IMG/VR virus record: IMGVR_UViG_3300025303_000103
Span: 1-32,181 of that record
Strand: one strand, 5' to 3'
From: a virus
DNA: 32,181 bases
In this document: positions 8,366 through 32,181 of the stretch, piece after piece
Position numbering within the stretch: position 1 is the first letter of the stretch
Layout: each line of letters begins with the position of its first letter
The notes under the pieces: generated by a model
What the model saw: only the letters and a program-made list of their open reading frames with translations
Databases searched by the model: none
Told to the model about the DNA's origin: nothing
Program-made: the position numbers and the translations under genes

Positions 8366-9393
8366 TGCCCGGCGCATCACGCCTCATCAGAGGCAACGAA
8401 TACACCGGGCTTGAATGGCGCACCCTGCCAGCTCGTCTGAAGGCTGAAGCCACCCGATGGGTGTACATCGGCCCAGATGGGTCGTGGTGGGACCTCGAAG
8501 GTAGGGACGCCGGTAAGCAAGGCGTCCGTCTGGGGCAGGGGTTGCAGGGCGCGTACCACCTGCCGTTCGAACAACTCTTGACCGAAGCTGCGTACCAGGT
8601 GGGGTCCACCTACGAGCGGACCAACATCAACAAACGGATCATCAACCTTGGTGTCGTTGCGGGTGCGCGCAACCCGAACATCAAGATGACCGCGGATGCC
8701 TACCGGCACATTGAGGCGAACTGGTGGAACGCGTGGCCCCATGACACACCTGGGTGGTTGGGATGCCATACCCGGTTCGGTGGGTGGCGTTGGGCCAGTG
8801 TGCAGTTGGCGAAGGCCATCGACACGACCATGAAGATGGACCCCACGGCGATGAAGAACAACGTCATGCAGTGGGACATGCAGATCATGGCGGTAAACCC
8901 GTGGTACGCGAAGCGCACCCTCGTGGAGAAGTGGGTTGCCCACCCGGAGACGGTGGCGCAAAACGGTTTCGACGAGGAAACGATCACCATCGCCAACCGG
9001 GGACATTTGCCGGCGTATCCGCTGTTCCTGTACAGCGCCCCGGGGCGTGCGTGGGTGCAGGACGGTATGACGTCCAACCTGATCAAACTGCCGTTGCTGG
9101 GACCGAATGAGAAGTACGGGATGGTCGACACCGACCCGGCGCACCGCACGTTGACGGGTGCCACGGACCCGGTCGACAACGCCTTCTACGACTTCATCCG
9201 CCATTCCCGGGTGTTGGATTTCTTCCTCCATGACACCGCGGCGTTGGGGTTGCCGTTGTGGCGGCGGGCGAACGGTATTCGGTTCACCTCACCCATTCCA
9301 CCGAAGACCGTTGCGAACTTGAAGGTTCGGCATGACCAGGCAGGAGGCAGTGTCACCGTGCTGCTGCCGCAAAGGTTCATCAGGCCGTCATGA
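8365..9393 (+). CDS. Minor tail protein, distal-tail (Dit)-like
   Basis: A 342-aa protein in the first slot after the tape measure, where siphoviruses encode the distal tail protein forming the ring at the tube tip. It has a mixed beta composition with many Trp residues (for example WRTLPARLKAEATRWVYIG near residues 18-36). The ATG shares one base with the tape measure stop (TAATG), and the end overlaps the next gene by four bases. In-frame codons upstream lie within the tape measure and are not used. The role is structural; the precise ring assignment is inferred from gene order. Confidence 0.78.
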   Translation: MPGASRLIRGNEYTGLEWRTLPARLKAEATRWVYIGPDGSWWDLEGRDAGKQGVRLGQGLQGAYHLPFEQLLTEAAYQVGSTYERTNINKRIINLGVVAGARNPNIKMTADAYRHIEANWWNAWPHDTPGWLGCHTRFGGWRWASVQLAKAIDTTMKMDPTAMKNNVMQWDMQIMAVNPWYAKRTLVEKWVAHPETVAQNGFDEETITIANRGHLPAYPLFLYSAPGRAWVQDGMTSNLIKLPLLGPNEKYGMVDTDPAHRTLTGATDPVDNAFYDFIRHSRVLDFFLHDTAALGLPLWRRANGIRFTSPIPPKTVANLKVRHDQAGGSVTVLLPQRFIRPS

Positions 9394-12794: not shown

Positions 12795-13996
12795 TGCCCA
12801 GGGCGGGAGACGCATTCCTCAACGGGGACCTGCCCCTCACCCATGACCCGTTGGGCAGGATCGACTACCACCCCAATGGGCCCGTCGTGGACCTGCAAGC
12901 GTTCATCGACGCTGTCACCAGCTTTCTGCACGACACGGTCTTCCCGATCATCAAGAACATCACCGGGTTGGACTTTTCCGGGCCGATGGAGTTCATCCAG
13001 AGCATCATCAACGTGCTGACCACTGGTGGCCCGATAGTGCAGAACTTCGGTAACACCGTCTTCGACATTCTCTCCCAAATTCTGTCGATCGGACCGTTGC
13101 AGGAATTGCTGCCGGCGATCTTCAGTGCGTTCGAGGGCATCGCTCTGGTCCCGGGGGCGATCCTCGGTGGCATTCAGGGTGCGGTGCAGAAGATCATCGA
13201 CGCCATCGTCAGTGCCATCACGGGTACGGCTTCGACGTTGAATGACATCACGGCGATTGTGGGGTCGTTCTTCAATCCGCTGCAGTTGTTGCAGAACGCG
13301 TTGGGGTTGATTCAGTCGATTGCTGATCAGTTGGGTGGGATGTCGGGTGGGTTGGATGCCCGGATTTCTGCTTTGGAGGCGGCGTCGTTGGGGGCGTCGG
13401 GGTTGGTGTCGGGGGACAACTTCAACCGTGCGTCCATTGGGTCGACGTGGACGAATGTCGCTGGTGCTCTTGCTATTGGGTCGAGTGACTTCGTGAAGAC
13501 GGCGGGGTTCGCCGCGGGGTATTACAACGTGGGGCGACCGTCGACTGACCGGTACGGGGTGGCGGTGAAGTTGGCGGCGAGGACGCCGGGGGATTGTTCG
13601 TTCTTCGGGTTCTCAGACACCACCATGTCGAACTATGTGGCGGTGAGGGTTCACGCCGGCCTGTTCGGGGATGATTTCCTCGCCCTGTACACGGGGTCCT
13701 CGCCGACGGTGAGTGTGGTGCACACCCAGGTGGACTTCGTGTCCAACCTCTTCGGCGGTAACTCGTTGAACGAGGGCGATGTCATCGCATTGAACTACGA
13801 CGACGTCACCAACACGTACAAGGTGTCCCGTAACGGTGCCGTGGTCGACGGTTTGACGTGGGTGGACAGTGACAACATCGTCACCCACGGTGTGACGAAG
13901 CGGGAGAACGGCATCGTCTCCAACGTGTTGAATCAGACCCTCCTCCCGGGGTTCGGGGTTACCGATTTCGTGTATTACGACCGGTCGGCCACGTGA
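12794..13996 (+). CDS. Minor tail protein with lectin-like C-terminal domain
   Basis: A 400-aa protein. The N-terminal half (about 30-195) is hydrophobic and helical (Ile/Leu/Val/Phe-rich), suggesting a helical bundle that anchors it to the baseplate. From about residue 205 a beta-sandwich begins at DNFNRASIGSTWTNVAG. Toward the end it has GDVIALNYDDVTNTYKVSRNG and then WVDSDNI, the strand order of concanavalin-like carbohydrate-binding domains. The next protein carries a related domain. The stop overlaps the next GTG by four bases. It probably contacts host surface glycans. Confidence 0.75.
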   Translation: MPRAGDAFLNGDLPLTHDPLGRIDYHPNGPVVDLQAFIDAVTSFLHDTVFPIIKNITGLDFSGPMEFIQSIINVLTTGGPIVQNFGNTVFDILSQILSIGPLQELLPAIFSAFEGIALVPGAILGGIQGAVQKIIDAIVSAITGTASTLNDITAIVGSFFNPLQLLQNALGLIQSIADQLGGMSGGLDARISALEAASLGASGLVSGDNFNRASIGSTWTNVAGALAIGSSDFVKTAGFAAGYYNVGRPSTDRYGVAVKLAARTPGDCSFFGFSDTTMSNYVAVRVHAGLFGDDFLALYTGSSPTVSVVHTQVDFVSNLFGGNSLNEGDVIALNYDDVTNTYKVSRNGAVVDGLTWVDSDNIVTHGVTKRENGIVSNVLNQTLLPGFGVTDFVYYDRSAT

Positions 13997-16641
13997 GTTT
14001 TTCGTTCGGGTTCTGCCAGTCCGAGCTGTCCGGCGGTGACGCCTGGATGTCGGAACCGGACATGCGGAAATGCTTGACTGGTATCAGGGACATCGGGGCC
14101 AGTGATGTTCGGATGGCGTGCGTGTGGGGATTCGTCGAAACCGCCCGGGGTCAGTTCAACTGGGGTCCCATTGACCGGGCTGTGACCATGACTCGGCAGT
14201 TCGGGTTGGCGCCTACTCTGGTGGTTCAGTTCCCCCCGCCGGGGTGGTCTGCGTCGGCGGGGGATTTCGGGAACTTCGCGAAAGCCGTTGCCGCTAGGTA
14301 TGGTTCGGGTGGGACGAATCAGTGCGCGAACTTCGAGATCATGAACGAAATGAACTCGATAGCCAACCTCGCACCCCCCAACGCGCAGCAATACAGTTCC
14401 TACTTGAAGGCCGCGTACCTGGGTATCAAGAGTGTTTACCCTGTCGGGTCGAACGTCATCTCCGGTGGCATCATGGCCGTGCTGGGTGGGTTCTTCACCC
14501 AGGACTCCGCGGACTTCGGACGCGGGTTGTACCAGACGGGGTGCAAGGGGTATTTCGATTCCCTTGGGTACCACTGGTACTCCAACACTGACCAGTTCGT
14601 GATGGAGAAGCCCACCGCGTCCCAGTTGTTTCTGTCGGAGATGACGCAGATTCGTGACCACATGGTTGCGCAGGGGGATTCGGCGAAGAAGATTTGGGTG
14701 ACGGAGTTCGGGTTCCCCCAGCCCACCGTCTCAGGTGTGAATGCTCGGGATTGGATGCACGCCCAGGTTGACATCCTGAACGGGTTGCCGTGGGTGGACA
14801 AGTGGTTCATCTACAACTACCGCAACTCCGGCACCGACATCGGGAACATCAACAACCAATGGGGTGTCGTCGATTTCAACTTCACCAAGAAGCAACCCCT
14901 GTGGGATTACGTCGCCACCCTGAACCCGGGTGTATCAGGTGCTTCCGCCCTGCCAGTAACGGCTCTTGCGTCCGGTACGGGGACGACGTTGGTGCCGAAC
15001 ACCATCCGCGCCACCGGTGAGGGCTTGGCCACGATAGACGCCCAGCAGGGCGGCACCCGACCCGTCACCGCTGTTCTCGCGGGTTCCGGTGCTGTGGTGG
15101 TGAAGCGGGACTTCTCGTACACCTTCACGGGGTCGACGAAACCCACCTCCTTGTTCGCGGATTTCGGGCAGGGGTACTCCGTCAGCGGTGGTGTCGCAGC
15201 CCCCAACCCGGTATGGGTGAACGGGTTCTACTTTTCCGGCGGCATCTACACCACCGACACGTTCTCACGCGACCAGTACGTTGAATTCACCACCGCCTCA
15301 GGCCAACCACCCTCCGGTGACCGGTCCAATATCCCCATCGTCCGCTCGGACGCCTCCGGGGCGAACTGGGTCGGCGCGGTCGGCCGGTGGGGCGGTGTGG
15401 GTTCCTCCCAAATCATCACCTGCATCGGCGGGAACATCCAGGGGCGTGAGGTGTCCTCGGATGCCTTCGTCGGTGGGGATGTCATGCGGCTCACCGCGGA
15501 CGGCAACACCTACCGGTTGTTCAAGAACGGTGCGCAGATCATCGAGTGGGTCGACTCCACCAACATCTTCACCGGTGGTGGGAAGCGGACCGGGTTCGGG
15601 TTCCAGCATGTGTATTCGTGGAGCAACTGGGGTCCGCTGAACATCACCGGCACCTGGTTGGCTGGTGACCTCCGCCCCGTCGTAGCCCCACCGTCGGGGC
15701 CGGTCACCATCACCGCTGTTGCAGTGGGTTCGGGTGTCACGTCCGGTGTCGTCGCCGCCGGCGCTTTACCGGTCACGGCTTCCTTGGTCGGTGCTGGTGT
15801 GCGGGCCGCGTACGGGTCCGGCTCCCTCGCCACACTGGCCGCTGCTGTCGGTGATGGGAACAACGGCCAAATCACCGGTGCTGGTGCGGCGCTGGTCACC
15901 GCGCAAACCACGTCCGGTGCGAACGTTCGTGTCACCGGGCAAGGTGACCTCCCCGCCACCGCCACAGCCGTAGGGAGCCCTGTTCCTCCGTTCACCCCCT
16001 ACAACGTCACCGCCAACCAAACCTCCCAACCAACTCCGGTCGGCTGCTCGGGGTGCTGGGTCACCCTTGAGGGAGCAGGTGCCCGCGGTGGCGACGGGTA
16101 CGGGTCCACCACCAACGGTGCCCGCGGCGGTGGTGGTGGTGGTGGCGGCGGCGCCTACATCCCTCGCTACTTCATCCCCGTGTCCCTACTGGGCAGCACA
16201 TACACGTTCAAGATCGCCACCAGTTCCAGCAGTGACAGTTTCTTCACCTCCGGTTCGTCGTCGTTGACCGCGGGAAGCGGTGGGACCGGTGGTAGCGGTG
16301 GGCCTGGCACCGGCGGCACCGCGGGTGCTGCTGGCGTGGCTTCCCAAACCGGGCTCAGCGGCGTCACCCTCTGCGACGGAGCACCCGGCGGCGCCGGTTC
16401 ACCCTCCGGTGTGGGTGGCAACGGCACCTCCACCACGAACGGTGCGGGTGCTGGCGGCCGCGGCGGTGGTGGTGCGTCCGGTGGCGGCACCCCCGTGGCT
16501 GGGACGGCGGGAACGTCGTCTGGTGGGCCGTACAGCGGCACCTACGGAAACGGCGGCAACGGTGCCAGCAGCAAGCACACCGCAGGCAACAACAGCGGCA
16601 GCAGTGGGCAGGCCGGTACCGGCTTGCTCGAGTGGGTCTAA
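13993..16641 (+). CDS. Minor tail protein: glycosidase-like barrel, lectin domain, glycine-rich tip
   Basis: An 882-aa protein with three parts. (1) Residues 1-315 look like a TIM-barrel glycoside hydrolase of clan GH-A. Candidate acid/base Glu119 is in FEIMNEMNS and candidate nucleophile Glu238 in WVTEFGFP, 119 residues apart, with aromatic residues (YHWYS) between. (2) About 375-560 is a beta-sandwich related to the preceding protein's (GDVMRLTADGNTYRLFKNG, WVDSTNI), flanked by repeated short units of the form LPVTA-x(3-5)-G-x-G. (3) About 685-882 is extremely Gly-rich, with a nine-Gly run and Gly-Gly-X repeats, as in receptor-binding tips built of polyglycine helices. GTG 13993 lies in a GTGA overlap. 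It likely cuts and binds a surface polysaccharide; the substrate is unknown. Confidence 0.85.
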   Translation: MSFSFGFCQSELSGGDAWMSEPDMRKCLTGIRDIGASDVRMACVWGFVETARGQFNWGPIDRAVTMTRQFGLAPTLVVQFPPPGWSASAGDFGNFAKAVAARYGSGGTNQCANFEIMNEMNSIANLAPPNAQQYSSYLKAAYLGIKSVYPVGSNVISGGIMAVLGGFFTQDSADFGRGLYQTGCKGYFDSLGYHWYSNTDQFVMEKPTASQLFLSEMTQIRDHMVAQGDSAKKIWVTEFGFPQPTVSGVNARDWMHAQVDILNGLPWVDKWFIYNYRNSGTDIGNINNQWGVVDFNFTKKQPLWDYVATLNPGVSGASALPVTALASGTGTTLVPNTIRATGEGLATIDAQQGGTRPVTAVLAGSGAVVVKRDFSYTFTGSTKPTSLFADFGQGYSVSGGVAAPNPVWVNGFYFSGGIYTTDTFSRDQYVEFTTASGQPPSGDRSNIPIVRSDASGANWVGAVGRWGGVGSSQIITCIGGNIQGREVSSDAFVGGDVMRLTADGNTYRLFKNGAQIIEWVDSTNIFTGGGKRTGFGFQHVYSWSNWGPLNITGTWLAGDLRPVVAPPSGPVTITAVAVGSGVTSGVVAAGALPVTASLVGAGVRAAYGSGSLATLAAAVGDGNNGQITGAGAALVTAQTTSGANVRVTGQGDLPATATAVGSPVPPFTPYNVTANQTSQPTPVGCSGCWVTLEGAGARGGDGYGSTTNGARGGGGGGGGGAYIPRYFIPVSLLGSTYTFKIATSSSSDSFFTSGSSSLTAGSGGTGGSGGPGTGGTAGAAGVASQTGLSGVTLCDGAPGGAGSPSGVGGNGTSTTNGAGAGGRGGGGASGGGTPVAGTAGTSSGGPYSGTYGNGGNGASSKHTAGNNSGSSGQAGTGLLEWV

Positions 16642-17170: not shown

Positions 17171-20100
17171 ATGGCGTCGCTCACCTATTTCAATGTCACC
17201 GCAACGTATTTGGCGGCGCTTAAAGACTCGTTGTACGACGTTGACAACGACCCCGAATTATCCCCAATGTCGGGGACTGTGGTGTTGACGCCTCTCATCG
17301 ACACCGGGGATTCCATTCCCGCCCCCACATTGACCCCTCCGGCGAATCTGTGGTTGGTGCCGATCCGCGCCCAAATCAAGGGCGGGAAGATCACCACCAA
17401 CGGGGCCAACGGGGTGAAACTCGTTGCGAACACGGCCGTGTTGGGGTTGTCGGGGAACCTGTACTACCGGGTCGACTACCCCGAGGGTTTGACTGCTGGC
17501 GGCAACCGGTACCAGCCGGACCCGTTCACCTTCCAAGCGCCCACCACGGCAACGACTGTGGACTTGGTGGAGGTCACCCCACTGCCAGGTCACCCTGCGA
17601 TTGCTGATGTGTTGCCGGTGGTGTCGGTGGGCGGCAAGACCGGTGCGATCATTCTCACCGCCGACGACGTGTCCGACGCGGGAGCCACGGGTAAGGCTTT
17701 GACCCGGGCTGCGGATCAGGCTTCAGCATGGTCGGCTCTGGGCCCCGTCCCCGACACCAACCTGCCGAACCTCGCGCTCGTTCAGTACAAGGGCGCCAAG
17801 GCCAACCAAACGGCAATGCTCGCCACCACGGGTGAACCTGGGGACTGGGTGACCCGGACGGACACTTCGACGGCGTGGATCATCACCGGCTCAAACCCCA
17901 CGCAGCTTTCGTCGTGGACGCAGTTGCCGTTCCCGTCGGTGACGTGGTCGAACCTGTCGGGGATGCCTGTTGTGGTTGCGGCTGGTACTACCCAAGCAGA
18001 AGCAAGAGACACCATCGCTGCGACACAAGCGTGGAAAGGCAGCACCGCCTACACCGCAGGGGCTACGATCAGCACCCCCCTGGGTATCTTCATGGCCCGC
18101 AAAACCTCGGGTACATCCGCGTCAACGTGGGCGACTGACCAAACCAACTGGGTGCCGTCGGACAGTGTGCGCGGCTGGTCGGTGAAGGACTTCGGCGCCC
18201 TCGGCGACGGTCAGATCCGCACAGGCATGTCCATGACATCAGGGTCGGCCGTACTCACCAGCGACGTCGACCGGTTCAGTGCTGTGCACGTCGGGATGAC
18301 GATTGGTGTCACCGGGGCGGGGAGTGCGGGAGTTCCGCTCATCACGACGATCTCCGGGTTCACCGACACGAAGCATGTCACCCTGGCCGCGCCTGCCGGT
18401 GCCACCGTCGCCAGTGCGACGGCGTCTTGGGGTACGGATGACTCTGCGGCGTTCACTGCTGCCATCACGGCCGCGTCGTCCAGTCGCCTGCCGTTGACGG
18501 TGCCATCGGTGGGTGGGCATTACGTCGCCGACGGGCTGGTCATCCCGAACGGGTCGGTGTTCACGATGCGTGGCGGCAGTCCCGCGTCGGACAAGTTTTC
18601 CCAGCTCCGCGGTGACGCCACGAACAACAGTCACCTCACCGGGGCCGCTGCGACCATCCGCCAAGTTCCCGGGTCCTCGGGCACGCTGCTCACTGTTTCC
18701 GGGGGCGGCACCACCTTGGAAGGGTTCCAACTGTCCGGTAACAACCGGATGGGTGCCGGTGTTGGGTTGCGGATTGACTACGGCATGGAGTGCCGCCTCA
18801 ACAACATCGTCGTCAGCGATTTCGCCGGTGTGGGGTTGAAGGTTGAGTCGGCGAACAACGCGTACTGGCAGTCGGTGTTCGTGTTCAACTGCGGAGCCAA
18901 CGACGGTGCGGGGAATTCCACCGCCTCCGCGGTGGTGCTGTCGGTTGGGTCTGATGTCAACGACAGCGTCAACTGCCTGACCCTCGAAGAACTGAACATC
19001 GAGTACTCGCAGGGCATTTCGCTGGACATCGGCCCAGGCATTCAGGCGGGCGGGTACTACCCAGAGTTCCTCCGTATTCACAAACTGCACATCGAAGCCA
19101 CCACTGGGTACGGCGGCGGTATCACCAACCCGTGGCCTTTGGTGCGGCTGGTCAACTGCCGTTCGGTGTCTTTCGTCGACCCGTTCCTCTACGGTGGGCC
19201 GGGGCCGTGCATCAGCCACGAATTCACCGCGACCTCGTCCTCCGAGATGGGCGGCATCACCATCATCGGCGGCACACTACTCGGCCGCCGGGCCGACTCC
19301 GGAGCTCAACCGTCAACGCTGGTGCGCCTCAAGACCGGCGACCAGTTCACCATGATCGGCACCCGCGTCGACAACTACTCCACGCAAGCCGTGCTGATCG
19401 ATTCGACCTACAACACGCAGGTCTTCGTTCACGACATCATGCGCGGCCCGAACACCGTGTCGCCGATCGTCACCGACAACCGGACCACCCGGGCGCCCAC
19501 GCTGGAGAGCGGTGACTACCGGGTCAACGGTGGGGTCGGACTGGGCATGGCGCCGGATGCCGCGTACGGCCTGTCATCTGCTCGCACGATGCAGGTCGTC
19601 AGCGGCGCCGGCAACGTCGGCTACGAAACCACGACGTACAGCTTCAACGGCCAGAGCCTCTTCAAACGCGCCAACGGCACACCGACTGGCCCGTCGGCGG
19701 TCGGCAACGGTGACACCATCGGCCTGTTCGGCTTCAACGGCCACAACGGCACAGCTTTCGCGGGAACGAAGGCAGCCGTCTACGCGGCGACTACTCAAGC
19801 GTGGACCGGCGGCGCGAACGGTGTCGCCCTCAAATTCCGCACCACACCGAACAACTCGTCGACACCACGCGACGTCGCCGCGTTCGGGCAGGATGGCCGC
19901 CTGGAGCTGCCGATCACCGGCAGCGGTGCTGGACTGCTCATCGGCGGCGACACCACCCTCTACCGCGACGCGGCCGACGTCTTGAAGACCGACGACTCGT
20001 TCACCATTGCCGGAACCCTCACCTCAACGTTGTCGGAAGTTCCCGCGTACGCCACGACCGGTCAACGAGTGTTTAAGCGTGCCAACGGAACTGCTGGGTC

Positions 20101-20482
20101 TCCATCGGCGTTGGCGAACACCGATGTGATCGGATTGCTCGGCTTCAACGGCCACAACGGCTCCTCGTTCGCGGGCAACAAAGCGTCGATCTTCGCGACT
20201 GCCACTCAGGCGTGGACAGGCTCGAACAACGGTGTGTCACTCACCGTGCGGACAACACCCAACAACTCGTCGACACCACGCGACGTCGCCATCTTCGGGC
20301 AGGACGCCAGCCTGTCCGTCATCGGCCGACTGAACACAGCCACCCCGGCCGTCGGCGGGGCCGGCCTCAACCTCCCCCACGGTGCAGCGCCGACCGCGCC
20401 CGCCGACGGTGACATGTGGACCACCACCGCGGGACTGTTCGTGCGTGTCAACGGCGTCACCAAGACGGTCACCCTCACCTAA
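17171..20482 (+). CDS. Pectate-lyase-fold tail spike
   Basis: The largest gene in the window: 1103 aa. Residues 1-160 form a beta-rich attachment region, and about 165-330 has helical and strand modules. KDFGALGDG at 339-347 is the conserved start of pectate-lyase-3-type tail spikes, but its partner DDSAAF begins only at residue 423, so about 75 residues are inserted between them. From about 440 to 780 short strands with Asn/Gly turns fit a right-handed beta-helix. Residues about 822-905 and 959-1042 are two copies of one C-terminal module (FKRANG...FNGHNG...AWTG...TPNNSSTPRDVA), 137 residues apart. ATG 17171 follows GAGAGG. It probably depolymerises or binds a host glycan as a trimer. Confidence 0.85.
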   Translation: MASLTYFNVTATYLAALKDSLYDVDNDPELSPMSGTVVLTPLIDTGDSIPAPTLTPPANLWLVPIRAQIKGGKITTNGANGVKLVANTAVLGLSGNLYYRVDYPEGLTAGGNRYQPDPFTFQAPTTATTVDLVEVTPLPGHPAIADVLPVVSVGGKTGAIILTADDVSDAGATGKALTRAADQASAWSALGPVPDTNLPNLALVQYKGAKANQTAMLATTGEPGDWVTRTDTSTAWIITGSNPTQLSSWTQLPFPSVTWSNLSGMPVVVAAGTTQAEARDTIAATQAWKGSTAYTAGATISTPLGIFMARKTSGTSASTWATDQTNWVPSDSVRGWSVKDFGALGDGQIRTGMSMTSGSAVLTSDVDRFSAVHVGMTIGVTGAGSAGVPLITTISGFTDTKHVTLAAPAGATVASATASWGTDDSAAFTAAITAASSSRLPLTVPSVGGHYVADGLVIPNGSVFTMRGGSPASDKFSQLRGDATNNSHLTGAAATIRQVPGSSGTLLTVSGGGTTLEGFQLSGNNRMGAGVGLRIDYGMECRLNNIVVSDFAGVGLKVESANNAYWQSVFVFNCGANDGAGNSTASAVVLSVGSDVNDSVNCLTLEELNIEYSQGISLDIGPGIQAGGYYPEFLRIHKLHIEATTGYGGGITNPWPLVRLVNCRSVSFVDPFLYGGPGPCISHEFTATSSSEMGGITIIGGTLLGRRADSGAQPSTLVRLKTGDQFTMIGTRVDNYSTQAVLIDSTYNTQVFVHDIMRGPNTVSPIVTDNRTTRAPTLESGDYRVNGGVGLGMAPDAAYGLSSARTMQVVSGAGNVGYETTTYSFNGQSLFKRANGTPTGPSAVGNGDTIGLFGFNGHNGTAFAGTKAAVYAATTQAWTGGANGVALKFRTTPNNSSTPRDVAAFGQDGRLELPITGSGAGLLIGGDTTLYRDAADVLKTDDSFTIAGTLTSTLSEVPAYATTGQRVFKRANGTAGSPSALANTDVIGLLGFNGHNGSSFAGNKASIFATATQAWTGSNNGVSLTVRTTPNNSSTPRDVAIFGQDASLSVIGRLNTATPAVGGAGLNLPHGAAPTAPADGDMWTTTAGLFVRVNGVTKTVTLT
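19655..20315 (+). repeat. In-gene tandem duplication in the tail spike 3' end
   Basis: Two copies of a module of about 250 bases are offset by exactly 411 bases (137 codons). Markers are GGCTTCAACGGCCACAACGG at 19730 and 20141, AACAACTCGTCGACACCACG at 19850 and 20261, and the FKRANG codons at 19661 and 20072. Some stretches are identical at DNA level while others have drifted. That indicates either a fairly recent duplication or repair by recombination between the copies. Confidence 0.85.
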
Positions 20483-20495
20483 CCGAAAGGTCCCC

Positions 20496-20795
20496 ATGGA
20501 GATCGACGGGCTGATCTACCTGCTCAACCAGGCCGGCGTGGCGCTGGCCCAAGCCAACGAACGCATCGCCGAACTGGCACGGGAGAATGATCGCCTAGTT
20601 GCCGAGCGCGGAGTCCGCGGCGAGCCTCCGGAGCCCATCTTGCTGCGTAACGGCGTTCAGGTCTACGAAGTGAACGGTAATTTCGTCATGGCGACTGGGG
20701 GCCAGTGGCTCGAAGGCACGTATCGCACACCTGATGAGGCAGTAGAAGCCGCGATGGTGCAAACGGCTCCGGCTGCTAAGCCACCCCAGTCGTAG
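20496..20795 (+). CDS. Small coiled-coil protein at the end of the tail operon
   Basis: A 99-aa protein. Residues about 5-40 form a charged amphipathic helix (NQAGVALAQANERIAELAREN) of coiled-coil type. A compact beta unit follows (NGVQVYEVNGNFVMATGG), then a Pro/Ala-rich end. CGAAAGG (20483-20490) precedes ATG 20496. Its last 20 bases overlap tail-to-tail with the acyltransferase gene on the other strand. It may be a spike chaperone or accessory virion protein; nothing in the sequence decides this. Confidence 0.7.
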   Translation: MEIDGLIYLLNQAGVALAQANERIAELARENDRLVAERGVRGEPPEPILLRNGVQVYEVNGNFVMATGGQWLEGTYRTPDEAVEAAMVQTAPAAKPPQS

Positions 20796-22908
20796 CGAAC
20801 GTCTCCACCATCGCCGGGGCGATCTTCACCCCGTACTCCGGTGACATGTGCACGTCGTCGTGCTTGGTCGGGGTCGACCCGGCAAACGGCGGGCACGCAC
20901 CCTGGCTGCAGAACCAGGGCCGCGAATCCACCCACACCCCGTTGACCTTGGTGGCGAGGTCCCGTTCAGCCCTCGCCATGCCGAGCCACTGATTGTCCAC
21001 GTAACTGACGCAGTCGGCGGGGGTGCGCCCGCGGGTGCCGTAACAGTCGCCGATGTTCACGTCCGCAGGTGGTGGGGACAGGAACAGGATCTTGGTGCCA
21101 GGGAAGCGGGCCACGATCTTGGCCATCGACTCGCTCCAACCGTTCGGCGAGATCGTGCCGTCGGAGCCGACGAGGTGCTTGGGCGTGTACGAGTTCGCGA
21201 TCACCACCACCTGCGGCTTGTTCGCAGTGATGTAGTCGATCGCGCGCTGCTTGCGGGCGGGGCACGCGTCCTGCAGGGTTTGGTCGTCGTTGGCGATCAG
21301 GTCGTCGATGAACGTGCATCCCGGCATCGCTTCGGTGTGCAGGCGCATTCCCATGCTGCGGGCCACCTCGCGTAGCGGTCCGACGTAGGACAGACCCACG
21401 GAGTCGCCGACGACGACCATCAGCGGCCCTGCACCCCATGAGCAGTCCGGGGGGTTGACGGTGCCGCACGGCACGACGTCGGGTGCTGCTTCCCTGCCGC
21501 CGATGACGTCTTCCATCGACGGGTTCAGCGCTGGCCAGTCGGTCGCCTGCAAGGCGGTCGCGATGTCAGCAGCGAGTGCTTTCCCGGCGGGACCAAAACT
21601 GTCCGGGGCGGGCTCAGGGACACCGGTTCCGTCTTGCGTAGTGGCGATGACGGCAGCGGGCAGCGCGACGGGTGCGTGATGCTCAACGGGGCGGAACGTG
21701 AAAGCTGCCAAACCGATCACCAGGCACGTCGCCGCGACGGCGGCACCGTACTGGGTGGCGGCGGACGGACGCCACCACCCCTTGCTGCGGAGGGATGCCC
21801 AGTCGGCGCGGCGCAGCGGATTCTCTACCAGGTGATACGACGCGCACGCCAAGCCGAATGAGACGAACACGGCGGCGACCGTGTACGCGGCGCTTGGAGG
21901 GAAGATGCTGGCGAGGAGCACGATGACGGGCCAGTGCACCAGGTACAGCGAGTAGGAGATGTCGCCGACGTAGCCGCTGAGGGGGTTGCGGAGGAATGCG
22001 TTCTTCGGTTCACCGCCAACGCCTGCGGCGATGACGAGCGCGGCTCCCAGCACCGGCAGGAGAGCCCACGGGGCGGGGAAACCCGCTGAGCCGTCGCTGA
22101 GCAGGTACATGCTGGCGGCGATGACGACGAGGCCGCCCCAGGACAGGATCGGCTTCGCGGCCGCAGGAATCCGGGCGAGGAGGCCAGCGGCGATGGCGAG
22201 CAGGGCTCCCGCGCCGAGCTCCCAAATTCGGGTCAGCGTGTCGAAGTACGCCCAGGCCGGAGCTGTCGCGGTCTGCACGATTGCGTATGTGAGTGACGCG
22301 GCGACGACGCAACCCATTACCACCCCAGCGATCGCCATGCGCCGGGTGTGGCTCCACGCCTTGCGGATCACGATGACGCTGATCAGGAAGATCAGGGCGG
22401 GCCACACGAAGTAGAACTGCTCCTCGATCGACAGCGACCAGTAGTGCTGCAGCGGGGAGACGGCGTCGCCCGCGTTGAAGTAGTCGGTGTCCTGGAACGC
22501 GAAGCGCCAGTTCGCCATGAACGCGAAGGCGAACAGTGCGTCGACCCCGACTTGGTGGGAGCGGAACGGAAGGAACACGATCAGCGACGCCAGGTAGGTC
22601 AGGGCGAGGACGACGGTGGCGGCCGGCACGATGCGTCGCACACGGTTCCAGTAGAACGCGCGGAACGACACCTTGCCCGTCGTCTCCGCTGTCCGCAGCA
22701 GGTTGCCGGTGATGAGAAACCCAGAGATCACGAAGAACACGTCGACACCAACGAACCCGCCCGTTGGCCAGCCCCACAGGTGGTTGGCGAACACGGTGAG
22801 GACGGCGACCATCCGCAAGCCTTGGATGTCGAGGCGCTGATGCTTTGCCGCAGCCCGCCGCTGCCTTCGCCGCGATTTCTTCTTGTACTGCTTCAGAACG
22901 TCTGCCAT
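20776..22908 (-). CDS. Membrane acyltransferase (AT3/OafA-like) with C-terminal SGNH domain
   Basis: A complete 710-aa gene on the opposite strand inside the late region. Residues 1-25 are strongly basic and cytoplasmic. About 30-410 contain ten to twelve membrane helices of the acyltransferase-3 family, with the R-x10-H motif (Arg32, His43) and GGFVGVDVFFVISGFLI (50-66). About 470-710 is an exported SGNH hydrolase-type domain with GDSVGLS (Ser503) and DDVHMS (His687). In this family the membrane part passes an acyl group, usually acetyl, to the SGNH part, which O-acylates a surface glycan or peptidoglycan. ATG 22908 has GAGGGG upstream. Own-promoter antisense placement suggests expression in lysogens. 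The substrate is unknown. Confidence 0.9.
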   Translation of the reverse strand: MADVLKQYKKKSRRRQRRAAAKHQRLDIQGLRMVAVLTVFANHLWGWPTGGFVGVDVFFVISGFLITGNLLRTAETTGKVSFRAFYWNRVRRIVPAATVVLALTYLASLIVFLPFRSHQVGVDALFAFAFMANWRFAFQDTDYFNAGDAVSPLQHYWSLSIEEQFYFVWPALIFLISVIVIRKAWSHTRRMAIAGVVMGCVVAASLTYAIVQTATAPAWAYFDTLTRIWELGAGALLAIAAGLLARIPAAAKPILSWGGLVVIAASMYLLSDGSAGFPAPWALLPVLGAALVIAAGVGGEPKNAFLRNPLSGYVGDISYSLYLVHWPVIVLLASIFPPSAAYTVAAVFVSFGLACASYHLVENPLRRADWASLRSKGWWRPSAATQYGAAVAATCLVIGLAAFTFRPVEHHAPVALPAAVIATTQDGTGVPEPAPDSFGPAGKALAADIATALQATDWPALNPSMEDVIGGREAAPDVVPCGTVNPPDCSWGAGPLMVVVGDSVGLSYVGPLREVARSMGMRLHTEAMPGCTFIDDLIANDDQTLQDACPARKQRAIDYITANKPQVVVIANSYTPKHLVGSDGTISPNGWSESMAKIVARFPGTKILFLSPPPADVNIGDCYGTRGRTPADCVSYVDNQWLGMARAERDLATKVNGVWVDSRPWFCSQGACPPFAGSTPTKHDDVHMSPEYGVKIAPAMVETFATTGVA

Positions 22909-22960
22909 GGAACGACCCCCTCAACCGCCTGAAGTGGCGGACCCCCCGGTTTAGCTGCGC

Positions 22961-22991
22961 ATCTTAACTGCGCCGCCCATGTGACCGCCAA
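22961..22991 (-). promoter_or_regulatory. Candidate promoter for the acyltransferase gene
   Basis: On the minus strand TTGGCG (complement of 22986-22991) and TAAGAT (complement of 22961-22966) are separated by 19 bases and lie about 50 bases ahead of the acyltransferase ATG. The -10 fits the actinobacterial TANNNT consensus and the -35 is partial. The spacer is two bases longer than ideal. A small hairpin (CCGCC 22925-22929 with GGCGG 22936-22940) lies in the leader. Confidence 0.3.
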
Positions 22992-23323: not shown

Positions 23324-23656
23324 ATGAGCTTCCTGACCACCATCGGTAACGCCATCGCAGACCAACTCATGCCCGTGGTGGAAGAGAAGGGCAAGCAGCT
23401 CCTCGACAAAGCCGAAGCCAAGGCGGAGGAGGTGTTGGTGAAGATCATCGACACCGTCCAAGCGGAGATTGAGAAGCGCATCCCAGCACTGACTGCGGCG
23501 TTGGTGACGGCGGTGACGCAGGCGGGTGCGACAGCGGTTCAGGACGGCGCGGACAAGCTCACCGACTTCATCCCCGGGCAGGTGGATGACGCCATCTTGG
23601 ACCCCATCGTGAAGAACGCCATGGACATCTTCCGAAACCTCACCAAAGGCCACTGA
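23324..23656 (+). CDS. Helical protein directly upstream of lysin A
   Basis: A 110-aa protein, nearly all predicted amphipathic helix: Lys/Glu/Ala heptads at about residues 17-55 (KGKQLLDKAEAKAEEVLVKI) and a second Ala/Val/Thr helix at 55-75. There is no transmembrane span. GAAAGGGG (23311-23318) precedes ATG 23324. The stop overlaps the lysin A ATG (TGATG), so the two are translationally coupled. It may be a lysin partner, an inhibitor or a late virion protein; none can be chosen from the sequence. Confidence 0.65.
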   Translation: MSFLTTIGNAIADQLMPVVEEKGKQLLDKAEAKAEEVLVKIIDTVQAEIEKRIPALTAALVTAVTQAGATAVQDGADKLTDFIPGQVDDAILDPIVKNAMDIFRNLTKGH

Positions 23657-24909
23657 TGTCCTTCGTCTGGAAGGCCGACAAAAGGCTCCGAACCCCGGAG
23701 CAAGTCATGGCCATCATCATCACCACCGTCAACGAACTGAACATGCCCGACAAACGCGGAGCGGCTATCTGCGCGGGGATGTGCGTCGCTCAGGAGTCGG
23801 ACTTCTGGTGCCCCTGGAACGCAAAAGAACCCTCATCCAAGGGGTTCCCGTTCGACTCCCAGTCCGACGACGGACGGTCGGTGGGTTACTACCAGCAGCA
23901 GACCGGCCCCAAGGGTGAGTTGTGGTGGGGCCCAGTGTCGCAGGAGATGGACGTTCACCTGTCCACCCGGGAGTTCCTGACCCGGCTCAAGAAGAACGGT
24001 TACAACGCGGCGAGCGCCCAAGCGGCGAACGACTCCGTTCAAGCCGTGCAGCGCAGCGGTGTCCCACAGGGCTACATGAAGCACTGGGACCGCATCCGAA
24101 CCCTCTACGACAGCGTCGCGAGCGGCGCAGTACAGGAGCTACCCGTGGACCCGAACCGCCCAGACTTCAACGAAGTCAACCAAATCGGCTACGACGCCGC
24201 CGACCCGCACGGCAGTGTCCGCAGCCGCCCACCCATCAACTTCTTCATCCACACCCAGGAAGGTGACGGCAACGCCACCGACCTCGCCGCCTATCTACGC
24301 AGCACCACAGGTAACAAGGCGGTGTCCTACCACTACACCATTCGTGAAGACCTCAACGACCACGGTGTCACCGTCGTGGACGTCATCGACACCGACCTCT
24401 ACGCATGGGCGGTGTTGAACGCCAACGTCTTCTCAATCAACTTGTGCTTCGCTGGGTCACGGGCAGCGTGGAGCCGCGACCAGTGGTTGCAGCAATCCCG
24501 AGCCATCGACGTCGCCGCCTACCTTGCAGTCGCCGACTGCAAGAAGTACGGAATGCCCACCGAAGTGCTCGCCCCGCCGTACGCCGGCGCAGCCCGCGGC
24601 GGCATCAGTGACCACAAGTACGTCACCCAAAAGCTCGGTATCGGCAACCACACCGACGTCGGCGACAACTTCCCGTGGGATGTCTTCGCGGCCGCGGTGA
24701 AGAAGTACGTCGCCGCTGACCTCCCACCGGCGGTGAGCCCGCCTGTCGTGGCACCGTCCGCCCCACCGCCGAAGCCTGTTGGTCCTGCGGACGACCAGCT
24801 CACGTTGCGGTGGAACATGCTCGGCGGTCAGACCGTCGTGGAAGCCCTCGCCGAAGTGCGGGACAAGGTCACCGGCAGCACCGACCGCACCAAGACGGGC
24901 GTGAAATGA
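23656..24909 (+). CDS. lysA: Lysin A, peptidoglycan endolysin (lysozyme-like plus amidase)
   Basis: A 417-aa modular endolysin. The N-terminal domain (about residues 10-155) looks like a lysozyme/transglycosylase fold, with a candidate catalytic Glu47 in CVAQESDFW and a GYYQQQTGP loop. A linker leads to an N-acetylmuramoyl-L-alanine amidase domain (about 190-360): His199 in FFIHTQEGDG, His320 in SDHKYV, and His332 with Asp334 in GNHTDVGDNFPW are the expected zinc and active-site positions. After a Pro-rich hinge, a C-terminal piece of about 40 residues (WNMLGGQTVVEALAEVRDKV) recurs in actinophage lysins. There is no signal peptide, so a holin must let it reach the wall. Confidence 0.92.
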   Translation: MSFVWKADKRLRTPEQVMAIIITTVNELNMPDKRGAAICAGMCVAQESDFWCPWNAKEPSSKGFPFDSQSDDGRSVGYYQQQTGPKGELWWGPVSQEMDVHLSTREFLTRLKKNGYNAASAQAANDSVQAVQRSGVPQGYMKHWDRIRTLYDSVASGAVQELPVDPNRPDFNEVNQIGYDAADPHGSVRSRPPINFFIHTQEGDGNATDLAAYLRSTTGNKAVSYHYTIREDLNDHGVTVVDVIDTDLYAWAVLNANVFSINLCFAGSRAAWSRDQWLQQSRAIDVAAYLAVADCKKYGMPTEVLAPPYAGAARGGISDHKYVTQKLGIGNHTDVGDNFPWDVFAAAVKKYVAADLPPAVSPPVVAPSAPPPKPVGPADDQLTLRWNMLGGQTVVEALAEVRDKVTGSTDRTKTGVK

Positions 24910-25979
24910 AAATCAACGGCACCTACGTAGGGCTCGGTGAGGGTGACACCTCACCTGAGGTTGTAAAGGTCAAAGCGCTGCTGAAGAAGAAGTTCACCCC
25001 CGCCCGCAACACGTTGGACGACGGACCATTGTTCACTCCGGCGCTGACCGCGGAAGTGGTTCGCGTGCAGGGGGTGTACGCGTCGCAGGGGAAGCCGGGT
25101 GCCCCGAAGTACATCCCCGGTGTCATCAACCTGGAGTTCAAGTACGACGTCGGCCTGTTGCAGCGCCCACCAAAGACCCTGCCGATCGTATTCACGGTCG
25201 AGGGACACATGTCGAGCATGTTTTTCGGGCCGTGCGCGCAGACCGCCGGCGCGCTCGAGCAGCAAGGTGTCTGTCATTGGAAGCCGGTGGGGGACTGGGA
25301 CACCACGTCCATCCCATTCAAGAACAACACCGGTGTCGAAGCGCTGTACCGGCAGCTCAGCCAGAACGCCATCGAAGGCGGTCCGGTAGACCCGAACAAC
25401 CCCGACGGCCCAAAGGTGATGTGGCCCTTCCCCCCTGGCACCCCGTGGGGCGGTGTCGCGTTCTCCCAAGGGGCGATGGTGTTCTGCGAGTTCATGTGGA
25501 AATACGTCCTCCCACCCTCAGCGCCGTTGCACTACCGGCTGAAAGACTTCAAGCGCGGCTTGATGTTCGGCAACCCCCGCAGAGCCAAGGACGCAGTGTG
25601 TTCGTGGGCTCAGTCCCCACCCGACCCTGGCACCCACGGCATCATGGACAAACTGTTCGACGCCAACGCTGAAGGCATCGGAGACCGGTGGGCTGAGCAC
25701 CCGAACAACGACGACATGTTCGCGGAGGTCGGCGACGACTCCATGAGTCAGGACCAGACCGCCATCGCGAAGATTGTGTGCGAGGGGTCGTTCACCGGTG
25801 GGCCTTCGTCCATCTTCACCCGGGTGCTGAAGATTTTCGGCAACCCGTTGGGCGAAGGGTTCGGGGTGGTGAAGGCCATCTTCGACGCCATCATGTTCCT
25901 CGCCGCCAACCCCAACCCCCACTACTCGACGTTCGCCACTCCCGGCGACATCGAATGGGTTCGCGGCGTCGCCGCCTAA
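24906..25979 (+). CDS. lysB: Lysin B, mycolylarabinogalactan esterase
   Basis: A 357-aa alpha/beta-hydrolase. Residues about 1-85 resemble a peptidoglycan-binding segment. The catalytic domain has the nucleophile elbow GGVAFSQGAMV (Ser187) and a C-terminal His339 in PNPHYST, fitting the Ser-Asp-His triad of the LysB/cutinase family. The acid is probably an Asp in the 250-300 region. LysB cuts mycolic acids from arabinogalactan, so it is useful only against hosts with a mycomembrane. ATG 24906 overlaps the lysin A stop (ATGA). Confidence 0.92.
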   Translation: MKINGTYVGLGEGDTSPEVVKVKALLKKKFTPARNTLDDGPLFTPALTAEVVRVQGVYASQGKPGAPKYIPGVINLEFKYDVGLLQRPPKTLPIVFTVEGHMSSMFFGPCAQTAGALEQQGVCHWKPVGDWDTTSIPFKNNTGVEALYRQLSQNAIEGGPVDPNNPDGPKVMWPFPPGTPWGGVAFSQGAMVFCEFMWKYVLPPSAPLHYRLKDFKRGLMFGNPRRAKDAVCSWAQSPPDPGTHGIMDKLFDANAEGIGDRWAEHPNNDDMFAEVGDDSMSQDQTAIAKIVCEGSFTGGPSSIFTRVLKIFGNPLGEGFGVVKAIFDAIMFLAANPNPHYSTFATPGDIEWVRGVAA

Positions 25980-25997
25980 CCACCAACGGAGGAAATC

Positions 25998-26240
25998 ATG
26001 AAGCTGCCCGCATTCGCCCAAGACCTCGCAGAACGTGCGGTGAAGACGTTCGCGTACGCAATGCTCGGCGCCTTACCCGTCACCGCGTCCACCACATCGG
26101 TCGTCGGAGTTCCGTGGCTGGACGCCGCGCAGATCGCCGCGTCCGCCACCGTGCTGTCGGTGCTGGGGTCGTTGGCGTCACTGAAGTTCGGCAATTCTGG
26201 TACCGCGTCGCTTACCTCGGCGGTTGAGCCCGCCCCGTGA
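25998..26240 (+). CDS. Holin, r1t-like
   Basis: An 80-aa membrane protein. The N-terminus DLAERAVKTFAYAMLGAL (about residues 9-26), then a second hydrophobic segment (WLDAAQIAASATVLSVLGSLA, about 40-60), matches the r1t-type holin layout of two membrane helices and a short polar tail. An excellent ribosome site GGAGGAAA precedes ATG 25998. It lies directly after lysins A and B, and its end overlaps the next GTG (GTGA). It would set the lysis time by forming membrane holes. Confidence 0.85.
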   Translation: MKLPAFAQDLAERAVKTFAYAMLGALPVTASTTSVVGVPWLDAAQIAASATVLSVLGSLASLKFGNSGTASLTSAVEPAP

Positions 26241-27755: not shown

Positions 27756-27792
27756 CCGCCCCTCAGCTTTCAGAGCTGGGGGGCGGCGTTTT
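27756..27792 (+). terminator. Strong rightward terminator of the late operon
   Basis: A 13-pair stem (27756-27768 with 27774-27786, one G-T pair) closes on a five-base loop (TTCAG) and is followed, after CG, by TTTT at 27789-27792 on the plus strand. The minus strand has no T-run next to the stem, so it stops rightward transcripts. It lies beyond the last late gene, so late RNA continues across the 27478-27753 gene in antisense. The stem overlaps the stop codon of the leftward gene at 27763. Confidence 0.65.
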
Positions 27793-28050
27793 GCGTTCAC
27801 CCTTGACGGCGAAGTACACATCCGGCCCAACAAGGTCCATCTGCGACATCTCGTAGGCGGCGCGCTGCGCTTGGGACTCCTCCCGCCACCTATCCATGTC
27901 CGCGAGGGTGTAGCCCTTGCCTGCGTCGGGTGCGTGCTCGGGGCACCAGATGCGGTCCTCCGAACTATCGCCGAGACCACCGGTCGTGCTGAACCCGGTC
28001 TCGTAGGACACCGTGATGCCGCACTGATAGCACTTCACCTCGTCAGCCAT
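27763..28050 (-). CDS. Zinc-ribbon-like small protein
   Basis: A 95-aa protein starting MADEVKCYQCG. It has a Cys-x2-Cys pair at residues 7-10 and a second pair in WCPEH (Cys-x2-His) near 36-39, as in one-zinc ribbons. The rest is a charged helix (LADMDRWREESQAQRAAYEMS) and a polar tail. ATG 28050 is preceded by AGGGA. Longer upstream frames overlap the divergent gene at 28082 and are rejected. It may be a small DNA-, RNA- or protein-binding regulator; the function is unknown. Confidence 0.65.
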   Translation of the reverse strand: MADEVKCYQCGITVSYETGFSTTGGLGDSSEDRIWCPEHAPDAGKGYTLADMDRWREESQAQRAAYEMSQMDLVGPDVYFAVKGERKTPPPSSES

Positions 28051-28068
28051 GGTGTCCCTGCTTGGTTG

Positions 28069-28081
28069 TACCGTTAGACCC
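28069..28081 (+). promoter_or_regulatory. Candidate leaderless promoter for the gene at 28082
   Basis: TACCGT (28069-28074) fits the TANNNT -10 consensus and is followed by exactly seven bases before GTG 28082, the geometry of leaderless transcription common in Mycobacteriales. No good -35 lies at the usual distance, and no ribosome site precedes the GTG. The divergent gene starts only 31 bases away. Confidence 0.35.
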
Positions 28082-28315
28082 GTGATTGGTGACGTTGTCC
28101 CCTGGAAAGGGAAGTGGGCTGTCGTAGCACCCAACACGTGCATCAACGGACACCGCCTCGGCCCCGGGGAAGTCACTGTTGGACACCAACCATGCTCGGC
28201 CACCCACTCGCACGTCACTTGGTTTTGCAGAACGTGCAAGGACGTGCAGTATGGCCCGCCGCTTGGCGCCGACTGCCGAATCCTCCACGGAGCAGCAGGC
28301 ATCAGAAACCTCTAA
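28082..28315 (+). CDS. Small Cys/His-rich protein, actinophage-wide type
   Basis: A 77-aa protein, the only rightward gene in the leftward block. GTG 28082 starts MIGDVVPWKGKWAVVAPNTC. The spaced metal-ligand set is Cys20, then His25, an HQPC group, HSH, WFCRTC and a final Cys near residue 67, suggesting one or two zinc sites. Proteins of this pattern are widespread in actinophages and in prophage remnants of their hosts, with no known function. It ends two bases before the stop of the convergent gene at 28318. The start has a leaderless-type -10 and no ribosome site. Confidence 0.7.
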   Translation: MIGDVVPWKGKWAVVAPNTCINGHRLGPGEVTVGHQPCSATHSHVTWFCRTCKDVQYGPPLGADCRILHGAAGIRNL

Positions 28316-30870: not shown

Positions 30871-32133
30871 CTACAAGGCTTTCGGGACCAACACGGCCAG
30901 GGCATCCATCATCGCGGAGTTCTTCGCCTGGTCAGCGTGCGCGTACACCCGGGTCACCTCAGCCGAGGCGTGACCAAGGATCTCCATCCGGGTTTGTTCG
31001 TCGGCACCGGCCGCACGGAGCACGGTGGCAGTGGTGTGGCGGGTGGCGTGCAAGGGCATCGTCTCGTTAGAACCGATGATGCCAGCACCGCGTAGGAGTG
31101 CGTGCCATGCCTCGGAGTCATCCTTTGGGTCCACGGGGCGCCCGTCGACCCGGTGGAACACGAGGTTGTGGGGGTTGGCCCCAACATCCTTGGCGTGCAG
31201 CTCTGCCAGCGCCAGTCGCAGCGGTTCGATGATGGGCACCCACCGTTTACCGGATTCCGACTTCGGTCGCGTCAACGCCAGTGAGGCGTGCAGCGGGTGG
31301 TATTCGAACTTCACTGGCACATCCCACCGGGGATTGGTGCAGCGGGCGCCGTACTTCTTCCCGCACGGCCAGCGGCCGGTGAACTCTCCGCACCCGTGGG
31401 CACGCTTGATGGACTGCAACTGCCACGTGATGTCCACCGCACCCGATTCAAGGTCGACTCGGTCCCACGTCATCCCAAGGGTCTCACCCTGCCGGGTACC
31501 GGTGAGGAACACGAACAACCACCTGGCAGCTTCCATCTGATTACAGTGCTCGGCCGCGTAGGTGAGGATCGTCTGCACCTGGTCGACAGTCAGGGCTGCC
31601 CGTTCACCGGGTACGAAGTCGGGTGTGTCGACGGCGTCGCATGGGTTGTGCCGGATGATCCTCTCCGCCACGGCGTCGGTGAGTGCCTTGTTCAGCACCA
31701 CGTGAGCCTTCTGGGCGCGACGCTCACCCTTGCCGATGGTGTTGGTCATTCGCCTCACGTCGGCCGCGGTGAGTTCCACCAGCTTCTTGCTGCCGATGAT
31801 GCGGGCGATGTTCGCGCAGGTGTACCCGTAGTCCTTGTACGTGCTTGGCCTGATGCGTTCCTTGTGGATGTGGGGGAGCCAGTAGTCGAGCCATTTCGTC
31901 ACGGTGATGCTTCGGTCGAGTCGGAGGCCGTCGGCGGTCTCGGCTTTCAGTTGCTCGAGTTTGGCTACGGCGGTGCGGTAGTCGCCGGCGTAGACGTAGC
32001 GCCGTCGCCGCTTCCCGTCTGGTCCGGGGGATGCTTCGATGCTGCCGTACCAGATGCCGTCGCTCTTGCGTTGGGAGATGCTGCCCTCGCCCTTGGCCCT
32101 CGACGGCTTCTTCTTCTTGGACACGAACGGCAT
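30871..32133 (-). CDS. int: Tyrosine integrase
   Basis: A 420-aa site-specific recombinase that integrates and excises the genome at attP/attB. A basic N-terminal arm-binding part (residues 1-50; SISQRKSDGIWYG then KRRRRYVYAG) leads to the core-binding helices (about 75-170) and the catalytic domain. Active-site residues are Arg214 (TGTRQGE), Lys291 (TRPKSESGKR), His362 and Arg365 (LHATRHT), His388 (GHAS) and Tyr397 (TRVYAH). A Cys-bearing insertion (about 245-275: C248, C257, C265) interrupts the domain, as in other actinobacterial integrases. ATG 32133 has GGAGAGGAA six bases ahead. No attP core was recognised next to it. Confidence 0.93.
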   Translation of the reverse strand: MPFVSKKKKPSRAKGEGSISQRKSDGIWYGSIEASPGPDGKRRRRYVYAGDYRTAVAKLEQLKAETADGLRLDRSITVTKWLDYWLPHIHKERIRPSTYKDYGYTCANIARIIGSKKLVELTAADVRRMTNTIGKGERRAQKAHVVLNKALTDAVAERIIRHNPCDAVDTPDFVPGERAALTVDQVQTILTYAAEHCNQMEAARWLFVFLTGTRQGETLGMTWDRVDLESGAVDITWQLQSIKRAHGCGEFTGRWPCGKKYGARCTNPRWDVPVKFEYHPLHASLALTRPKSESGKRWVPIIEPLRLALAELHAKDVGANPHNLVFHRVDGRPVDPKDDSEAWHALLRGAGIIGSNETMPLHATRHTTATVLRAAGADEQTRMEILGHASAEVTRVYAHADQAKNSAMMDALAVLVPKAL

Positions 32134-32181
32134 GGGCAGTTCCTCTCCGTAGCGACTCCACACGACGCTACACACATACAT

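What the first reader, a model, noticed from the sequence alone, without database searches (positions are those of the whole stretch)
20776..22908. Complete surface-acylation enzyme carried antisense inside the phage late region
A 710-aa acyltransferase-3 protein with a fused SGNH domain, with R-x10-H, GDSV and DxxH motifs intact, is inserted on the opposite strand between the tail and lysis genes and has its own candidate promoter. This family O-acylates surface glycans or peptidoglycan, and related phage enzymes in other bacteria change serotype and block superinfection. In a phage of mycolic-acid bacteria the target could be arabinogalactan, peptidoglycan, lipoglycan or glycolipid. The same phage carries a glycosidase-like fibre and a pectate-lyase-fold spike, which suggests it modifies the very glycan it uses for entry. 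Sequence and motifs are seen; the role is inferred.
Basis: partly seen in the sequence, partly recalled or inferred. Interest (0 to 1): 0.8.

Follow-up and report, generated by a model that had tools for sequence, protein, structure and literature searches.

The report
Phage-borne mycobacterial surface-glycan acyltransferase gene
A temperate phage of soil-type mycobacteria carries, on the strand opposite its late genes, an intact host-derived membrane enzyme of a well-known kind that adds acyl groups to surface sugars; it is probably a cargo gene that changes the lysogen's coat.

Summary
Window 20776-22908 (-) is an intact 710-aa AT3-SGNH acyltransferase (Pfam PF01757 + PF19040; PHROG 6705 'O-antigen acetylase'). 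R32-x10-H43, R89xxR92, GDSV 501-504 and D684xxH687 are present and their key residues conserved. It lies between tail and lysis genes of a temperate phage. It belongs to a fully supported Mycobacteriaceae clade that mixes chromosomal and prophage copies. The nearest copy (60-62%) sits in a Mycobacterium yunnanensis prophage in the same antisense slot, followed by a GDSL hydrolase. A phage with an 85%-identical lysin segment carries only such a GDSL gene there; other relatives carry neither. Similar phage genes near tail genes and integrase are already annotated in Gordonia and Arthrobacter phages, and Salmonella BTP1 OafB is the studied precedent. So it is a new member of a known kind. No Mycobacterium phage appeared among 62 matching records of 50,697. 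Its chromosomal cousins lie in Wzx/Wzy-type polysaccharide loci, which points to an exported polysaccharide rather than arabinogalactan or peptidoglycan. Expression, donor, acceptor and any effect on superinfection are untested.

The parts
20776..22908 (-). AT3-SGNH acyltransferase gene, 710 aa
21835..22830 (-). AT3 (Acyl_transf_3) transmembrane domain, aa 27-358
   Evidence: AlphaFold model mean pLDDT 90.3
22780..22815 (-). R32-x10-H43 motif
   Evidence: both residues invariant in 45 homologues
20809..21450 (-). SGNH domain, aa 487-700
   Evidence: best PDB match 6se1
21397..21408 (-). GDSV nucleophile motif, aa 501-504
20848..20859 (-). DxxH (D684, H687) of the SGNH triad
22916..22922 (-). 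ribosome-binding-like GAGGGGG
   Evidence: sequence
22961..22966 (-). candidate -10 TAAGAT (only one on this strand of the window); weak -35 TTGGCG at 22986-22991
   Evidence: not found by the sigma-70 scan
20496..20795 (+). small convergent ORF (99 aa) whose 3' end overlaps the acyltransferase gene by 20 bases
   Evidence: no PHROG match
17171..20482 (+). tail spike-like protein; PHROG pectin-lyase match at aa 337-438
13993..16641 (+). minor tail protein with N-terminal Glyco_hydro_cc domain
23656..24909 (+). lysin A (amidase)
24810..25979 (+). lysin B (PHROG 102); likely true start inside this ORF
25998..26240 (+). holin
30871..32181 (-). tyrosine integrase, 66% identical to that of the M. 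sphagni prophage which also carries an AT3-SGNH gene

Best explanation
The gene is a lysogenic-conversion cargo gene of host origin. In the lysogen it is transcribed from its own leftward promoter, while the phage late operon runs the other way through it (inferred). The product sits in the cytoplasmic membrane: the AT3 domain draws an acyl group (probably acetyl, possibly succinyl) from acyl-CoA at the cytoplasmic side, and the extracytoplasmic SGNH domain passes it to a hydroxyl of an exported surface polysaccharide of the mycobacterial host (mechanism taken from OafB/OatA; not shown here). The altered coat probably reduces adsorption or depolymerisation by competing phages, perhaps including its own kind, and may give the lysogen other surface benefits (inferred).
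For: Family, domains and active-site motifs intact. Confident model (pLDDT 90.3, pTM 0.87): AT3 helices plus helix 383-404 leading to an SGNH domain. Best solved-structure match is the periplasmic domain of a Salmonella LPS acetyltransferase, 6se1, by fold (E 5.7e-7) and by profile (E 6.2e-6). Temperate phage. Accessory: absent from 20 mycobacterial prophage regions with related tail genes (two of these regions are cut short by contig ends) and from relatives L116, L121, L123, L124 and L125, some of them fragments. Cultured relatives Nergal and MalagasyRose go from tail to lysin A without an antisense gene. Same slot, same orientation in an M. yunnanensis prophage, followed directly by a GDSL hydrolase; L116 has only that hydrolase there. 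AT3 genes of other actinophages and viral contigs mostly point against the next gene block and several lie near an integrase. The clade mixes chromosomal and prophage copies. Chromosomal cousins lie in Wzx/Wzy-type loci. Precedents: Sf6 Oac and BTP1 OafB hinder phages that cut the O-antigen (PMC9558356).
Against: No expression, biochemical or phenotypic evidence. The promoter is only a candidate. The acceptor is inferred from the context of 50-58% identical cousins; the host species and its polysaccharide are unknown. The SGNH half looks less conserved than the AT3 half in the alignment, so the acceptor may differ from that of the cousins.
Confidence: 0.62

Rival explanations
1. The enzyme acylates a conserved envelope glycan (arabinogalactan or lipoarabinomannan), as mycobacterial SucT does, rather than an exported polysaccharide.
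For: NCBIfam's only match is the M. smegmatis SucT model over the AT3 domain; SucT acts on mycobacterial envelope glycans (PMC10503756 found; details from own knowledge).
Against: 179.7 bits against a curated cut-off of 1275, AT3 half only. M. yunnanensis has, besides its prophage copy, a chromosomal full-length relative only 35% identical to the phage enzyme, which could be its SucT.
Confidence: 0.15
2. A recently captured host gene without benefit to the phage (hitch-hiker in transit).
For: Nested among chromosomal genes of the host family; patchy.
Against: Open frame with all motifs intact; same slot and orientation in a second, divergent mycobacterial prophage; repeated in many actinophages.
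Confidence: 0.13
3. It acts in the lytic cycle, for example acylating the wall to tune lysis, or its antisense overlap regulates late transcription.
For: Lies directly before the lysis genes; no terminator-like site separates it from the convergent late transcript.
Against: Opposite strand to the late genes; in the Gordonia and Arthrobacter phages such genes sit between tail genes and integrase, not beside the lysins; chromosomal cousins are in polysaccharide loci.
Confidence: 0.07

Closest known systems
OafB (GtrC family II) of Salmonella phage BTP1, AT3-SGNH O-antigen rhamnose acetyltransferase
   Same: AT3 fused to SGNH, same motifs, carried by a temperate phage; best fold and profile match of the SGNH domain is 6se1, a Salmonella LPS acetyltransferase domain; BTP1 gtrC matches over AT3 at 30%
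   Different: Gram-negative O-antigen acceptor; only about 30% identity over AT3; different genome position
AT3-SGNH genes of Gordonia phages Murp, LonelyBoi, BritBrat and Arthrobacter phage Peas (annotated O-acetyltransferase A, O-antigen acetylase, OatA-like, or hypothetical)
   Same: Full-length or AT3-half homologues (39-47%), integrase-bearing actinophages, between tail genes and integrase, convergent with the tail genes in three of four
   Different: Not between tail genes and lysin A; other host genera; no functional test known to me
AT3-SGNH gene of the M. yunnanensis DSM 44838 prophage (L036)
   Same: 60-62% identity, same slot and orientation, related tape-measure protein
   Different: Followed by an overlapping GDSL hydrolase gene absent from the window
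SucT, mycobacterial succinyltransferase (NF058601)
   Same: AT3 domain match, mycobacterial
   Different: Far below the curated cut-off (179.7 of 1275 bits), AT3 half only

Membership tests
AT3-SGNH membrane acyltransferases | Acyl_transf_3 domain above Pfam's cut-off | tested here: met
   96.8 bits, cut-off 31
AT3-SGNH membrane acyltransferases | fused SGNH domain above Pfam's cut-off | tested here: met
   PF19040 71.9 bits, cut-off 27
AT3-SGNH membrane acyltransferases | R-x10-H and RxxR motifs of AT3 (PMC9833829) | tested here: met
   R32/H43 and R89/R92
AT3-SGNH membrane acyltransferases | SGNH Ser-Asp-His triad | tested here: met
   S503, D684, H687 invariant in 45 homologues
AT3-SGNH membrane acyltransferases | AT3 helix bundle plus helix linking to an SGNH fold | tested here: met
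   predicted model, pLDDT 90.3; SGNH matches 6se1. No solved full AT3-SGNH structure matched
AT3-SGNH membrane acyltransferases | acyl transfer to a sugar | not testable with these tools
   -
Phage lysogenic-conversion (moron) genes | temperate phage | tested here: met
   tyrosine integrase; related prophages
Phage lysogenic-conversion (moron) genes | accessory, absent from close relatives | tested here: met
Phage lysogenic-conversion (moron) genes | own promoter, apart from lytic operons | tested here: inconclusive
   opposite strand; candidate -10 only
Phage lysogenic-conversion (moron) genes | expressed in the lysogen and changes its phenotype | not testable with these tools
   -
SucT equivalog (NF058601) | curated cut-off 1275 bits | tested here: not met
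   179.7 bits
Known anti-phage defence proteins (PADLOC) | match to a PADLOC model | tested here: not met
   none up to E 0.01

The most novel reading that the evidence does not exclude
The interval between tail genes and lysin A in some mycobacterial temperate phages is a cargo slot for antisense enzymes that write or erase acyl groups on the host's exported polysaccharide: AT3-SGNH alone (window), AT3-SGNH plus an Rv0518-like GDSL hydrolase (M. yunnanensis prophage), or the GDSL hydrolase alone (L116). This would be serotype-like conversion in mycobacteria.
Probability: 0.25. Interest if true: 0.55.

Novelty: new member of a known kind. Interest (0 to 1): 0.4.

Why it matters
Coat conversion by prophages is well known in enterobacteria and Pseudomonas; I found no paper showing it in mycobacteria, though the search was limited to open-licence text. 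If this enzyme acylates an exported polysaccharide it would give a direct handle on mycobacteriophage receptors and on how prophages change mycobacterial surfaces. The gene's absence from all Mycobacterium phages in the collection, most of them isolated on one M. smegmatis strain, may mean that the target polysaccharide is missing from that strain (inference).

Tried and rejected
Known defence system: no PADLOC match. SucT orthologue: far below cut-off. Direct sequence match to solved structures with the single protein: none; a profile was needed. Conserved core gene of this tail lineage: rejected, absent from 20 related prophage regions. Literature searches for phage AT3 enzymes in actinobacteria, or for Wzy-type polysaccharide with prophages in mycobacteria, gave nothing specific. 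Generic promoter scan: nothing.

Full report
Observation. The window is a 32,181-base virus record, a fragment of a temperate tailed phage: scaffold, capsid, tail, spike, lysis genes and a tyrosine integrase. On the minus strand at 20776-22908 lies an intact 710-codon gene. Pfam finds Acyl_transf_3 (aa 27-358) and the SGNH domain known from AT3 fusions (aa 487-700); PHROG 6705, 'O-antigen acetylase', matches nearly full length at 1e-126. The OafB study describes R-x10-H in TMH1 and RxxR at the cytoplasmic face of TMH3 as the conserved AT3 motifs, and Ser-Asp-His as the SGNH triad (PMC9833829). In 45 homologues these residues are invariant. The predicted structure is confident (mean pLDDT 90.3, pTM 0.87); its SGNH part matches PDB 6se1, the periplasmic domain of a Salmonella LPS acetyltransferase.

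Which host. The protein falls in a clade of 18 Mycobacteriaceae sequences with full support (quick method, inner order unsure). The phage has lysin B. Its integrase is 66% identical to that of an M. sphagni prophage and 72% to M. abscessus prophages. The best matches of its minor tail protein 8332-9393 in cultured phages are mycobacteriophages Nergal and MalagasyRose.

Position and patchiness. A sister contig, L120, is identical in protein over 16 kb but ends before the gene. The best relative of the gene, in an M. yunnanensis prophage, sits in the same slot and orientation: tail genes, then the antisense AT3-SGNH gene, then lysin A and lysin B; its tape-measure protein is related to the window's. 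There the gene is followed, with a four-base overlap, by a GDSL hydrolase. In L116, a phage whose lysin A has an 85%-identical segment, only a 51%-identical GDSL hydrolase lies in that slot, also antisense. Both GDSL proteins resemble the Rv0518 family below its cut-off. L123/L126 has a sense-strand ORF there and L125 nothing comparable. Of 396 sampled genomes of the M. yunnanensis genus group, 24 hold a related tail gene; in 20 downstream regions taken from them no AT3 or GDSL gene was found, although two of these regions stop early at contig ends. Nergal and MalagasyRose have no antisense gene there. The M. sphagni prophage carries its copy between integrase and lysis genes instead.

How common. 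Among 50,697 phage records 62 match, including Gordonia phages Murp, LonelyBoi and BritBrat and Arthrobacter phage Peas over most of the protein or its AT3 half; none is a Mycobacterium phage, although at least 539 Mycobacterium records are present. In viral contigs 30 relatives were found; in most the gene is convergent with the next gene block (ORF choice in GC-rich DNA is approximate). Antisense placement is therefore the usual arrangement, not an oddity.

Likely acceptor. Cousins on mycobacterial chromosomes (52-58% identical; L038, L041, L042, L043, L045, L060) lie among genes for a Wzx-like polysaccharide exporter, Wzy/O-antigen ligase, a Wzz-type chain-length protein, glycosyltransferases, a GDP-mannose dehydratase-like epimerase, methyltransferases and an initiating sugar transferase. 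This suggests an exported, Wzy-type polysaccharide. It is context, not proof.

Mechanism. Shown: an intact gene, conserved motifs, predicted fold, position, patchy distribution, host descent. From the literature: AT3 brings an acyl group across the membrane from acyl-CoA and SGNH passes it to the sugar (PMC9833829); phage Oac and OafB enzymes change O-antigens and hinder phages that cleave them (PMC9558356). Inferred: expression in the lysogen from TAAGAT 52 nt upstream, the only such hexamer on that strand; silence or interference during late transcription, because no terminator-like site on the plus strand was found between 16500 and 26500; acylation of an exported polysaccharide; reduced phage adsorption.

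Verdict. A new member of a known kind, in a host group where it was not evident among cultured phages.

Noticed in passing
L116:7975-8766 (-) and L036:12124-12888 (+): Related GDSL hydrolases (51% identity, Rv0518-like) in or beside the same antisense slot of two mycobacterial phages.
   Followed up: partly
L126:3237-4409 (+): In a relative with tail proteins 80-88% identical, the tail-lysis interval holds a sense-strand 390-aa ORF that looks sedolisin-like by eye (not tested).
   Followed up: no
L127:7808-8218 (-): In the sister contig, beyond terminase-like ORFs, a 144-aa ORF is 34% identical to the N-terminal 139 residues of the window's spike.
   Followed up: no
27763-28302 (-): Small protein of unknown function, part of which recurs (36-45% identity) in three mycobacterial prophages (L006, L036, L165).
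   Followed up: no
24906-25981 (+): The lysin B region shares 76% DNA identity over 1.1 kb with Mycobacterium phage LilSpotty while the rest of the searched stretch does not: a mosaic exchange.
   Followed up: no
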